Assembly (NCBI RefSeq): GCF_002111585.1
Contig: NZ_LUTP01000003.1
Span: 62,001 to 126,000 of the forward strand
Length of the DNA stretch: 64,000 nt
Source of the DNA: Lonsdalea iberica
GTDB lineage: Bacteria > Pseudomonadota > Gammaproteobacteria > Enterobacterales > Enterobacteriaceae
Reading direction: 5' to 3'
Shown: positions 17,811 to 19,678 of the stretch, in pieces
How positions within the stretch are numbered: position 1 is the stretch's first letter
Layout of the letters: each line of letters opens with the position of its first letter
Notes under the pieces: generated by a model
The model's database searches: none
Seen by the model: only the letters and a program-made list of their open reading frames with translations
Told to the model about the DNA's origin: nothing
Program-made: the position numbers and the translations under genes

Positions 17811-17855
17811 ATGACTTATTCACATCCAACCCTTTGCAGGCCGCGTCAGGATTAA
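17811..17855 (+). CDS. 14-codon leader ORF with a near-perfect Shine-Dalgarno, upstream of rtcB2
   Basis: AAAGGAGG lies six bases before ATG 17811. The frame reads MTYSHPTLCRPRQD then TAA. It sits 87 bases before the rtcB2 start, and a run of eight T residues follows near 17911-17919. The site is strong for ribosome binding, but whether the peptide is made or matters is unknown. A role in sensing 16S rRNA 3'-end damage is discussed as a finding. Confidence 0.35.
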   Translation: MTYSHPTLCRPRQD

Positions 17856-17942
17856 TCACCGCAGTTCTCTTTTTCTTCGCGTATTGTCCCGACCCTGCCT
17901 GCCCACGCATTCTTTTTTTTAATTGATCAACAGGATTGATCT

Positions 17943-19064
17943 ATGGGCAATACGATTCGCTTTATCTCTGCGCGCGTGAATGTGATCGCGTCGCAAAACA
18001 CCTGGATTGATGATACCGCCATTCAGCAATTGACCGCTACCGCCGGTCTGCCGGATATGGCGCGGGTGTCCGGCATGCCGGACCTGCATCCGGGTCGCGG
18101 TTACCCCATTGGGGCCGCTTTTTTCTCTCTCCGCCGTTTTTATCCTGCGCTGGTCGGCAACGATATCGGCTGCGGCATGGCACTTTGGCGCACCGGCTTG
18201 CAGGCCGGAAAAATTTCTCTGGATAAGCTGGAGAAAAGGCTCGGCAATATCGACGGTCCGTTGGATGACGTGCCGGAGGTTCCCGACGATATGCTGCTTC
18301 ACCGGTTTTCTCTCGGGACGCTGGGAGGCGGAAATCATTTTGCGGAGCTGCAACAGGTGGACCAGGTCTACCAGCCGTCGCTCTTCGAATCACTAATGCC
18401 GGATGCACGGCGATTGTTGCTGTTAGTGCATAGCGGATCGCGCGGGCTAGGTCAGACGATTCTGGAACGTCACCTGCGAAAGCATGGGCACCAAGGCGTA
18501 CTGGAAGGCACGCCCGAAGCCGATGATTACTGGCGGCAGCATCAGCAGGCGCTGCGCTTCGCCGAGTTCAACCGGCAGTGCATCGCCCGCCGCATGTTGC
18601 AACGTTGGCATGCAGAAGGCGAAGCCTTGCTGGATGTGACTCACAATCTGGTGACGCCGACCACAATCGACGGTGAGGCTGGCTGGCTGCATCGCAAAGG
18701 TGCCACACCGTCCGACGCGGGACCGGTCGTCATACCCGGTTCCCGCGGCGATTACAGCTATCTGGTACAGCCGATGCCTGATGCGGTGAGCTTGTTCTCT
18801 TTGGCGCATGGCGCAGGTCGCAAATGGATGCGCGGCGAGTGCAAAGCGCGGCTCGAACAGCGTTACAGCGTGCAGGATCTGGCGCGCACCGAGCTGGGCA
18901 GCCGCGTCATCTGTCAGGATAAAGCGTTGATGTTTCAGGAAGCGCCTCAAGCGTACAAGTCGATTGATACGGTCATCGCCTCTCTGGAGAACGCGGGACT
19001 TATCACGCCGATTGCACGTTTGAAGCCGTTGTTGACGTATAAAACGCGGGGAGGCGTCGCATGA
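17943..19064 (+). CDS. RtcB-family RNA ligase (RtcB2, PrfH-associated)
   Basis: The 373-residue protein is a GTP- and manganese-dependent RNA ligase joining 2',3'-cyclic phosphate and 5'-OH ends. Metal and catalytic motifs are present: GNDIGCGMALW, GTLGGGNHFAEL, LVHSGSRGLG, DVTHNLV and the guanylylated-histidine motif SLAHGAGRKWMRG. It is shorter than E. coli RtcB and matches the group paired with peptide release factor H. Its stop overlaps the prfH start (ATGA). Known work on such pairs shows repair of ribosomes cut in the 16S decoding centre by colicin E3-type nucleases. No RtcR regulator is present nearby. Confidence 0.92.
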   Translation: MGNTIRFISARVNVIASQNTWIDDTAIQQLTATAGLPDMARVSGMPDLHPGRGYPIGAAFFSLRRFYPALVGNDIGCGMALWRTGLQAGKISLDKLEKRLGNIDGPLDDVPEVPDDMLLHRFSLGTLGGGNHFAELQQVDQVYQPSLFESLMPDARRLLLLVHSGSRGLGQTILERHLRKHGHQGVLEGTPEADDYWRQHQQALRFAEFNRQCIARRMLQRWHAEGEALLDVTHNLVTPTTIDGEAGWLHRKGATPSDAGPVVIPGSRGDYSYLVQPMPDAVSLFSLAHGAGRKWMRGECKARLEQRYSVQDLARTELGSRVICQDKALMFQEAPQAYKSIDTVIASLENAGLITPIARLKPLLTYKTRGGVA

Positions 19065-19678
19065 TTTTTTTACAGCTATCCGCCGCGCAAGGGCCTGATG
19101 AGTGCATGTTGGCGACCGCCAAGGCATTGCACACGCTGACGCGCGAGGCGCACGCGTTGTCCGTCACGTTGGAAGTGGTGGAAAGCGAACCTGGAGACCG
19201 GCCGGGAACGCTGAGATCCGCGTTGGTTCTAGTGCAGGGCGACGCCGAGGAAGCACTGGCGAATTTATGGTGCGGAACGTTGCAGTGGGTTTGTCCCAGT
19301 CCTTGGCGTAAAGGGCCGGGACGAAAAAACTGGTTTATCGGCGTGCAGCGTTTCACGCCGCAACACACGTTCACTGATGGCGAGATCCGTATCGAGACGC
19401 TCCGTTCTTCCGGTCCCGGCGGTCAGCACGTCAACAAAACCGAGTCTGCCGTTCGTGCGACGCATGTCGCCAGCGGCATCAGCGTACGGGTGCAAAGCGA
19501 GCGCAGTCAGCATGCCAATCGCCGGCTGGCGCTTCAGCTGATCGAGTGGCGGTTACGGCAGCAGCACCAGCAGCGGACGGCGGCCTTGCGGGAGCAGCGA
19601 CATCGTTGTCACCAGCAGATTGAGCGTGGCAACCCCGTTCGGGTGTTCAAAGGCGAGCGCTTCGAACCCTGCGGTTAG
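19061..19678 (+). CDS. prfH: Peptide chain release factor H homologue
   Basis: The 205-residue protein has the class I release-factor catalytic motif GGQ in SSGPGGQHVNKTESAVRATH. It is shorter than RF1/RF2 and lacks the stop-codon recognition superdomain they carry. In PrfH-RtcB2 pairs PrfH is reported to recognise ribosomes damaged in the decoding centre and release the stalled peptide so that the ligase can reseal the 16S rRNA. Translational coupling through ATGA with the ligase gene supports joint action. The locus lies between bsmA and yjfP, where E. coli has none, so it is accessory. Confidence 0.92.
   Translation: MIFLQLSAAQGPDECMLATAKALHTLTREAHALSVTLEVVESEPGDRPGTLRSALVLVQGDAEEALANLWCGTLQWVCPSPWRKGPGRKNWFIGVQRFTPQHTFTDGEIRIETLRSSGPGGQHVNKTESAVRATHVASGISVRVQSERSQHANRRLALQLIEWRLRQQHQQRTAALREQRHRCHQQIERGNPVRVFKGERFEPCG

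What the first reader, a model, noticed from the sequence alone, without database searches (positions are those of the whole stretch)
17811..19678. Near-perfect Shine-Dalgarno leader ORF before an rtcB2-prfH ribosome-repair pair
AAAGGAGG plus a 14-codon ORF lies ahead of rtcB2. E3-type cleavage of 16S rRNA removes the fragment that contains the anti-Shine-Dalgarno. A leader whose translation depends strongly on that sequence could sense intact versus cut ribosomes and switch rtcB2-prfH expression, perhaps through the T-rich tract at 17911-17919. The hairpin needed for attenuation is not obvious, so this stays a hypothesis.
Basis: inference. Interest (0 to 1): 0.55.

Follow-up and report, generated by a model that had tools for sequence, protein, structure and literature searches.

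The report
Ribosome-stall switch before ribosome-repair genes
A tiny leader gene and a set of competing RNA folds, kept across many proteobacteria including E. coli, sit in front of two ribosome-repair genes and probably switch them on when ribosomes get stuck in the first few codons; the Pseudomonas aeruginosa version of this leader is already known, its spread and fold elsewhere appear not to be.

Summary
The leader is real: AAAGGAGG (17797-17804) and a 14-codon ORF (17811-17855) precede rtcB2-prfH. Of 82 rtcB2 loci, 81 have such an ORF, against 48 of 1353 control windows. H1 pairs the SD arm with leader codons 7-10; H2 pairs overlapping bases with a downstream arm; H3 and H4 mask the rtcB2 SD and start codons. 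Arms covary; H4 is weakest. Modelled over 89 leaders, the rtcB2 start opens most easily with a ribosome on codons 1-4; the P. aeruginosa leader does not show this. Colicin-E3-cleaved ribosomes initiate (~75%) and halt after a few codons (PMC2615495), so the signal is probably early elongation arrest, not loss of the anti-SD. It is homologous to P. aeruginosa PA5471.1, upstream of armZ-PA5470 (RtcB-like, PrfH), a published ribosome-inhibitor attenuator: a new member of a known kind. Added here: wide conservation, including the E. coli strain I recall as ATCC 25922; covariation; a start-masking fold with no intrinsic terminator detected. Switching is inferred, not measured.

The parts
17731..17760 (+). 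Candidate sigma-70 promoter of the leader transcript: TTGCGA 17731-17736, 18-nt spacer, TAATAT 17755-17760
   Evidence: 8 of 12 consensus matches; best-scoring sites in 90 loci have their -10 end a median 44 nt (quartiles 39-50) before the leader ATG. Below the threshold of the consensus scan (none listed). Inference.
17797..17804 (+). Shine-Dalgarno sequence AAAGGAGG of the leader ORF
17794..17801 (+). H1 5' arm TGCAAAGG (segment 1), overlaps the leader SD
   Evidence: pairs with 17831-17838; 89.7% of cells paired, covariation score 0.155 against at most 0.084 when slid; 0 of 20000 permutations as strong
17811..17855 (+). Leader ORF, 14 codons, MTYSHPTLCRPRQD
   Evidence: ORF in 81 of 82 loci; R1 model hit 66.8 bits at 17786-17858 (the window leader is in the R1 training set)
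17831..17838 (+). H1 3' arm CCTTTGCA (segment 2) inside leader codons 7-10
17836..17841 (+). H2 5' arm GCAGGC (segment 2, shares GCA with H1)
   Evidence: pairs with 17897-17902; 96.5% of cells paired, covariation 0.230 against at most 0.065 when slid
17880..17889 (+). H4 5' arm, element X CGTATTGTCC
   Evidence: ten contiguous pairs, one of them G-U, with 17945-17954 (-15.3 kcal/mol; in the folds); support weaker than for H1 and H2 (one search counted a register shifted by one base for the last three pairs)
17897..17902 (+). H2 3' arm GCCTGC (segment 3)
17913..17920 (+).
17925..17941 (+). H3 hairpin GATCAA-CAGGA-TTGATC with the rtcB2 SD (AGGA) in its loop
   Evidence: sequence; in the folds; H3 arms covary in the wider set (0 of 20000, reversed control 6156)
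17945..17954 (+). H4 3' arm GGGCAATACG = last base of the start codon and codons 2-4 of rtcB2
   Evidence: codon 2 is GGC in 71 of 71 Gly cases, 36.3 expected from each gene's own usage
17943..19064 (+). rtcB2, RtcB-family RNA ligase, 373 aa
   Evidence: TIGR03073 568.2 bits, PF01139
19061..19678 (+). prfH, peptide chain release factor H, 205 aa, overlaps rtcB2 by 4 nt, GGQ present
   Evidence: TIGR03072 308.3 bits, PF00472; translation

Best explanation
It is a ribosome-arrest attenuator of the PA5471.1 type, controlling the rtcB2-prfH ribosome-repair operon. OFF: when the leader is empty or translated normally, H1 (SD arm with codons 7-10) keeps segment 2 busy, or the moving ribosome covers it; X and the H3 arms then pair with the rtcB2 start codons and SD. 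ON: a ribosome that starts on the leader but stops within about the first four codons covers the SD arm and leaves segment 2 free. Segment 2 then pairs with segment 3 (H2), which takes X up or shuts it in, so the rtcB2 start opens and prfH follows by translational coupling. Ribosomes cut in the decoding centre by E3-type nucleases should stop there, so the damaged ribosome itself would call for its repair; so would drugs that stop early elongation. PrfH could clear the parked ribosome and reset the switch. Shown: leader, helices, covariation of arms, codon constraint, specificity for the locus. Inferred: folding in vivo, arrest, induction, control at translation (with or without Rho), feedback.
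For: Leader ORF in 81 of 82 loci against 48 of 1353 control windows. Model R1 over 295 genomes of the order: all 21 genomes with E <= 1e-5 have the hit at an rtcB2 or rtcB2-remnant/prfH locus; 20 of the 25 rtcB2 genomes, 23 of 25 with three weaker hits at the right place. Covariation: permuted arms over 33 representatives reach the real pairing energy 0 (H1), 0 (H2), 0 (H3) and 2 (H4) times of 20000; column counts. Modelled cost to open the rtcB2 start, means of 89 leaders: free 12.9, P-site codons 1-3 11.3-11.8, codon 4 12.2, codon 5 13.7, codons 6-12 14.2-14.6 kcal/mol; leader-scrambled control flat at 14.4-14.8; codons 7-10 exceed the best of codons 1-3 by over 1 kcal/mol in 80 of 89. In 68 of 89 leaders at least four upstream bases pair with the rtcB2 start codons in the OFF state; in 56 of these the pairing falls by more than 0.3 with a ribosome on codons 1-3, and in 47 of the 56 the bases are then mostly taken up upstream. 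Gly-2 codon GGC 71 of 71. Lancaster 2008: cleaved ribosomes initiate at about 75%, essentially no peptide beyond about eight residues. The P. aeruginosa PA7 leader here, MIQFSTLCRLRLA, 254 nt upstream, fits the published 13-aa PA5471.1 with Q3 and F4 about 250 bp upstream; there ribosome stalling or an early nonsense codon raises ArmZ.
Against: No expression or probing data outside the P. aeruginosa literature, where the current (unconfirmed) model is an intrinsic terminator, not start-codon masking. The wild-type P. aeruginosa PA7 leader, left out for its length, shows no such position dependence in the model (free 12.1; codons 1-3 12.6, 12.4, 10.4; codons 4-12 10.3-12.4). H2 and H4 cross (X lies inside H2), so a nested-fold program makes them exclusive by rule; a real pseudoknot could allow both. 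The inner part of H2 that would take up X is not supported on its own (cognate stronger in 23 of 40). H4 is the weakest helix: 69% of cells paired, covariation score reached in 19 of 500 shuffles; 21 of 89 leaders lack it in the model. Reversed-arm controls also deviate (H4 158, H2 55 of 20000): part of the signal is base composition. 'Pairs changed on both sides' exceeds shuffles for none of H1, H2, H4 (373, 172, 371 of 500). The gain in mean start accessibility is small (0.35 to 0.40). Plain folding is not unusually stable (z -0.87 and -1.47). 'Best of codons 1-3' favours the reading; in scrambled leaders free minus best is 0.1 on average, over 1 in 11 of 89. Six rtcB2 genomes gave no leader by R1: G030, G277 (order sample), G318, G366, G496, G549 (class sample).
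Confidence: 0.66

Rival explanations
1. Transcription attenuation: segments 3 and 4 form an intrinsic terminator when the leader is fully translated, and the T-tract is its tail (the published model for P. aeruginosa, carried over).
For: Published model for PA5471.1 (PMC13041342, Fig. 6 legend and Discussion). H1/H2 here would be its 1:2 and 2:3 pairs (inferred; the paper's segment sequences were not seen). A T-run is present at 17913-17920. The start-masking model does not work in silico for the PA7 leader.
Against: No terminator-like site in the window; 10 of 91 leaders against 4-10 in five shuffles, none in L058 (P. aeruginosa PA7), L116 (E. coli), L042 or L001 by the same scan. Conserved pairings reach into rtcB2 codons 1-4. 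The scan is crude; Rho-dependent stopping after blocked translation would also lower mRNA, as for toiL-topAI (PMC12121999, passages).
Confidence: 0.28
2. Anti-SD sensor: ribosomes that lost the 16S 3' fragment cannot initiate on the leader, and the empty leader turns the operon on.
For: Very strong leader SD; the empty leader is somewhat more open (12.9) than a leader with a ribosome past codon 5 (14.2-14.6).
Against: Cleaved ribosomes initiate at about 75% in vitro; the empty leader is less open on average than one with a ribosome on codons 1-3; H1 can form when no ribosome is bound.
Confidence: 0.08
3. Nascent-peptide arrest: the conserved LCR residues stall the ribosome, as ErmCL or TnaC do (recalled).
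For: LCR is conserved in most leaders.
Against: In L070, L091, L093, L096, L098 and L101 the same nucleotides are read in another frame, in L092 in the third, and Xenorhabdus reads LFR, with the matching SD-arm change in most of its leaders: the RNA, not the peptide, is kept.
Confidence: 0.05
4. The conserved block is a DNA operator or an ordinary small gene without attenuation.
For: H1 is also a DNA inverted repeat; the block is strongly conserved in the genus.
Against: Arms covary while the sequence changes; the stop lies 12 nt after the motif in 77 of 88 leaders; the homologue is published as an attenuator.
Confidence: 0.03

Closest known systems
PA5471.1 leader of armZ (PA5471)-PA5470, Pseudomonas aeruginosa
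   Same: Same kind of gene pair (ArmZ is called RtcB-like, PA5470 prfH; PMC12057347, passages); leader of 13 aa about 250 bp upstream with Q3 and F4 (PMC3516279 and PMC13041342, passages), homologous to the leader found here (L058); reported ON with stalled ribosomes.
   Different: There studied as a trigger of the MexXY pump and modelled as transcription termination. Here: Lonsdalea-like genome and many other genera; start-codon masking proposed; E3 damage proposed as a natural signal. The masking model does not reproduce in the PA7 leader.
toiL uORF of topAI-yjhQP, E. coli (PMC12121999, passages read)
   Same: uORF stalling, also at the start codon, frees a masked ribosome-binding site; mRNA loss by Rho follows blocked translation.
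   Different: Different target genes; toiL is proposed to respond to stalls anywhere in the ORF, here only about codons 1-4 in the model. Sequences were not compared.
ermC/ermB leader attenuators (recalled; mentioned in PMC12121999)
   Same: Leader stall rearranges hairpins and opens the next ribosome-binding site.
   Different: Drug- and peptide-specific arrest deep in the leader; here no peptide constraint and an early window.
RtcR-controlled rtcBA RNA-repair operon (recalled; a reference title seen)
   Same: Repair operon switched on by damaged RNA.
   Different: Protein activator and sigma-54 there (recalled); a cis-acting RNA leader here.

Membership tests
PA5471.1-type leader attenuator | Short SD-led leader ORF directly upstream of an RtcB2-PrfH operon | tested here: met
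PA5471.1-type leader attenuator | Sequence homology to the P. aeruginosa leader | tested here: met
   P. aeruginosa PA7 (L058) shares GCAAAGGAGG and CCCTTTGCAGG with the window leader
PA5471.1-type leader attenuator | Competing pairings 1:2 and 2:3 | tested here: met
   H1 and H2 share GCA of segment 2; counts and permutations. That these are the published segments is inferred
PA5471.1-type leader attenuator | 3:4 intrinsic terminator (proposed, said to need confirmation in PMC12057347, so not treated as defining) | tested here: inconclusive
   none found by simple scans in the window or in PA7; 10 of 91 against 4-10 in shuffles
PA5471.1-type leader attenuator | Induction by ribosome inhibitors through leader stalling | not testable with these tools
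   published for P. aeruginosa
RtcB2-PrfH repair operon | TIGR03073 RtcB-family ligase followed by TIGR03072 PrfH with overlapping ORFs | tested here: met
   568.2 and 308.3 bits, both over cut-off; 4-nt overlap
RtcB2-PrfH repair operon | Protection from colicin E3 | not testable with these tools
   reported for E. coli ATCC 25922 (PMC9223846, passages)
Known Rfam families | Gathering-score match | tested here: not met
   six loci, 0 matches; window 17500-18000 one sub-threshold match on the other strand

The most novel reading that the evidence does not exclude
The leader is a ribosome-integrity gauge set to the run length of decoding-centre-damaged ribosomes: a cut ribosome can start on the leader but rarely reaches codon 5, so the damaged ribosome itself opens the rtcB2 start, and newly made PrfH releases it and closes the switch again. 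The drug-pump link of P. aeruginosa would then be a late borrowing of an old damage-and-repair feedback loop found across beta- and gammaproteobacteria.
Probability: 0.37. Interest if true: 0.8.

Novelty: new member of a known kind. Interest (0 to 1): 0.6.

Why it matters
It joins the armZ/PA5471.1 drug-response leader with the RtcB2-PrfH repair of E3-cut ribosomes. Of the 20 papers listed (28 held at least two of ArmZ, RtcB2, PrfH, PA5471) none holds both RtcB2 and ArmZ or PA5471, though reviews already call ArmZ RtcB-like, PA5470 prfH, and E. coli ykfJ a homologue that is inducible by a compound that disturbs translation. It gives a testable answer to how cells know that 16S rRNA has been cut: the cut ribosome stops on a leader within the first codons. 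It also questions the terminator model of PA5471.1 and can be tested in ordinary E. coli, where DNA matching the UTI89 leader region is in 5348 of 5426 complete genomes (5294 over at least 80% of the query) and is not annotated as a gene in the records read.

Tried and rejected
Sigma-54/RtcR-type promoter and CRP-like palindrome, both by eye: spacing wrong. Peptide-specific arrest: rejected because the motif is read in other frames in seven leaders. T-tract terminator: no support. MAFFT plus RNAalifold over 80 leaders gave only H2, because alternative folds cannot be one consensus. Mean pairing probability was blunt; opening energy was used instead. Alignment A2 misplaced the SD and was replaced by A3. 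R1 hits in G547 and G442 (E 2e-5 and 7e-5) lie in or at the edge of unrelated coding ORFs, so about 1e-5 is the noise floor. Rows dropped: A1 57 of 81 leaders, A3 48 of 91 (near-identical, very long or divergent ones left out); permutation test 33 representatives of 91; 89 of 91 (L081 identical to another, L058 over 300 nt; L058 then run alone); promoter statistics 90 of 91. R1 was trained on the window leader and on leaders of G018, G141, G174 and G177, among others, so their hits are not independent. Searches over more than 40 genomes use stricter filters and can miss weak hits.
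Full report
What was checked. The window carries AAAGGAGG at 17797-17804, six bases before the ATG of a 14-codon ORF (17811-17855), then rtcB2 (17943-19064) and prfH (19061-19678). A Tn3-family transposon ends at 17561, upstream of the candidate promoter, so leader and operon are intact.

More than chance. The SD-ATG string alone occurs nine times in the genome, three for the backward control. But among four genomes of the genus the block from 17781 to the leader stop has 5 variable columns of 75, against 59 of 121 just upstream and 8 of 100 in the start of rtcB2. Of 82 rtcB2 loci (the window, G001, and 80, by their titles Enterobacterales, Pseudomonas, other gammaproteobacteria and betaproteobacteria) 81 have an SD-led ORF of 8-25 codons in the 330 nt upstream, 80 with a CTTTGCAGG-like motif; control windows in the same loci, mostly coding, give 48 and 6 of 1353. 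The 82 are not independent. The exception, L028, has only 100 nt upstream; L017 has the ORF but no clear motif.

Anatomy. Four helices recur. H1 pairs TGCAAAGG (the SD arm) with CCTTTGCA in leader codons 7-10. H2 pairs GCAGGC, overlapping the H1 arm, with GCCTGC at 17897-17902. H4 pairs X (CGTATTGTCC, 17880-17889) with GGGCAATACG at 17945-17954, the start of rtcB2. H3 is a small hairpin around the rtcB2 SD. Changes compensate, for example: GAAAAGG with CTTTTC in most Xenorhabdus for H1; GCGGG with CCCGC in some Providencia and Serratia, GCAGAC with GTCTGC in E. coli and GCAGATC with GATCTGC in L091 for H2; in two Serratia (L024, L026) rtcB2 codon 2 AGC instead of GGC with GCT instead of GCC in X. 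Column counts: H1 89.7% of cells paired, covariation 0.155 (0.084 or less when slid); H2 96.5%, 0.230 (0.065 or less); H4 69.1%, 0.135 (0.106 or less). 'Pairs with a change on both sides' does not exceed the shuffles for any of the three (373, 172, 371 of 500 reach it); 'cells with a change on both sides' does for H2 (0 of 500) and H1 (15 of 500), not for H4 (216 of 500). In the partner-permutation test over 33 representatives the real energy was reached 0, 0, 0 and 2 times of 20000 for H1, H2, H3, H4; the reversed-arm control gave 8910, 55, 6156 and 158, so H2 and H4 carry some composition effect and H4 is the least certain. The inner part of H2 is not supported on its own (cognate stronger in 23 of 40). 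Independent of pairing, codon 2 of rtcB2 is GGC in 71 of 71 Gly cases (36.3 expected) and GAC or AGC in the other 10 of 81.

Not a peptide signal. In L070, L091, L093, L096, L098 and L101 the same nucleotides are read in another frame, and in L092 in the third; three of 91 leaders (L017, L082, L099) do not match the motif pattern. The H2 arm starts 22-28 nt after the A of the ATG (the script printed the next base, 23-29), and the stop lies 12 nt after the motif in 77 of 88.

Mechanism. For 89 leaders I modelled the cost of opening the rtcB2 start (-15 to +10) with a ribosome footprint (-15 to +16) on each leader codon. Means: empty 12.9; codons 1, 2, 3, 4: 11.3, 11.8, 11.4, 12.2; codon 5 13.7; codons 6-12 14.2-14.6 kcal/mol. 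Leaders with a scrambled interior are flat (14.4-14.8). In 80 of 89 the best of codons 1-3 is over 1 kcal/mol better than codons 7-10; against the empty leader this holds in 66 of 89, in 11 of 89 for scrambled leaders. The first, blunter measure showed the same direction with a small effect (0.35 to 0.40). Plain folds are not unusually stable (z -0.87, -1.47). Three limits. First, X lies inside H2, so H2 and H4 cross, and nested folding excludes them by rule; but in 47 of the 56 leaders where start pairing falls, X is mostly taken up by upstream pairing rather than merely shut out. Second, 21 of 89 leaders show no such X in the model. Third, the P. aeruginosa PA7 leader shows no clear pattern (12.1 empty; 12.6, 12.4, 10.4 on codons 1-3; 10.3-12.4 later). 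On average, then, the design opens rtcB2 most for a ribosome that started and stopped early. Lancaster et al. 2008 (PMC2615495; abstract and the sections Initiation, Pentapeptide synthesis and Effect of colicin E3) found that E3-cleaved ribosomes initiate at about 75%, make little pentapeptide and essentially nothing beyond about eight residues. They would park where the leader senses. That link is inference.

Transcription or translation. Terminator-like sites occur in 10 of 91 leaders, 4-10 in five shuffles, and not in the window, L058 (PA7), L116 (E. coli UTI89) or L042. With H4 reaching into the start codons, I favour masking of the start, possibly followed by Rho-dependent loss of mRNA as proposed for toiL-topAI (PMC12121999, passages). 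The scan is crude.

Specificity. Model R1 (H1 region, 48 sequences) over the 295 genomes of the order sample: 21 genomes reach E 1e-5. Twenty are among the 25 genomes with rtcB2, each hit just upstream of it; the other (G024) has the leader, an rtcB2 remnant and a prfH (TIGR03072, 285 bits). Three weaker hits are also in place (G287, G044, and G021, where rtcB2 is cut by a contig end): 23 of 25. G030 and G277 gave none. Some of these leaders were in the R1 training set. In the class sample (369 genomes; rtcB2 in six) G000 and G010 have it and four (G318, G366, G496, G549) do not, so the leader belongs to a subset of RtcB2 operons.

Known relatives. After the anatomy was worked out, a literature search led to P. 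aeruginosa PA5471.1, a 13-aa leader about 250 bp upstream of PA5471 (ArmZ), which is cotranscribed with the release factor gene PA5470 (PMC3516279, passages). The PA7 leader in my set, MIQFSTLCRLRLA, fits it (13 aa, Q3, F4, 254 nt upstream). Published: complete translation is proposed to form a terminator; stalling, an early nonsense codon or deletion of the leader region raises ArmZ (PMC13041342, passages and Discussion); a clinical leader-ORF deletion gives constant expression (PMC12057347, passages). These agree in direction with the model here. The same review says that the transcription-attenuation mechanism needs confirmation. PMC3516279 also notes that the truncated E. coli K-12 homologue ykfJ is inducible by 4-azaleucine and linked to a release factor gene. 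The primary paper (Morita 2009) is not held; I know it only through these. Baranov 2006 (PMC1586002, abstract and passages) and the E. coli E3 paper (PMC9223846, passages) have no occurrence of 'leader' or 'attenuat' in the main text. Among the 20 papers listed (of 28) none holds both RtcB2 and ArmZ or PA5471. No Rfam family matches.

E. coli. UTI89 has MTNPLSMTLCRPFQD with matching helices. DNA similar to its leader region is in 5348 of 5426 complete genomes, over at least 80% of the query in 5294, at 100% identity in FDA strain Seattle 1946 (which I recall as ATCC 25922), where rtcB2 and prfH are annotated without pseudogene flags. In K-12 MG1655 the two genes are pseudogenes. No leader CDS is annotated in the records read.

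Verdict. It is a new member of the PA5471.1 kind, with new evidence on its breadth, structure and likely natural purpose.

Noticed in passing
7444-17561: A 10.1-kb Tn3-family transposon (ends GGGGTCAG... at 7444 and 17561, 5-bp duplication TAATG at 7439-7443 and 17562-17566) with transposase and resolvase ends 169 bp before the leader's candidate -35 and spares the operon. In G004 the site looks empty.
   Followed up: partly
12611-13725, minus strand: Inside the transposon two neighbouring ORFs carry PAAR motifs (PF05488, 37.0 and 35.5 bits), suggesting secretion-system tip cargo on a mobile element.
   Followed up: partly
17731-17767 and the same place in relatives: The stretch after the best -10 site is very G+C-rich in relatives (often GCGCGCC; mean 83% GC over 90 loci), as in rRNA-type, growth-rate-controlled promoters (recalled).
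   Followed up: partly
17439-17780, minus strand: An antisense ORF covers the promoter region and runs into the transposon end; its part 17565-17774 has no NCBIfam or Pfam match; probably not a gene.
   Followed up: partly
L150 and L151 (E. coli BH212, 214-4): In 8 of the 12 rows listed the leader region is longer by about 56 or 128 bp. In the two read, an ERIC-like repeat (name recalled) sits in the loop of H3 and keeps both stem arms; rtcB2 is flagged as a pseudogene in both. A similar stretch lies in L018 (Serratia).
   Followed up: partly
L005 (G002): In one congener most of rtcB2 is lost; the leader SD region joins the rtcB2 5' part at a 13-base overlap ATCGCGTCGCAAA.
   Followed up: no
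L137 (G024): Leader and prfH (285 bits) kept although most of rtcB2 is gone, which suggests that the leader may still serve prfH.
   Followed up: partly
L100, L102-L108 (genus g56, small genomes): By eye the H3 arms are separated by a loop of roughly 200-260 nt, yet CCAATT-like and GGATTG arms are kept, and R1 finds the leader in all eight.
   Followed up: partly
L004/L006 (G001): rtcB2 is split into two overlapping pieces in different frames in one congener, a likely frameshift, while the leader is kept.
   Followed up: no
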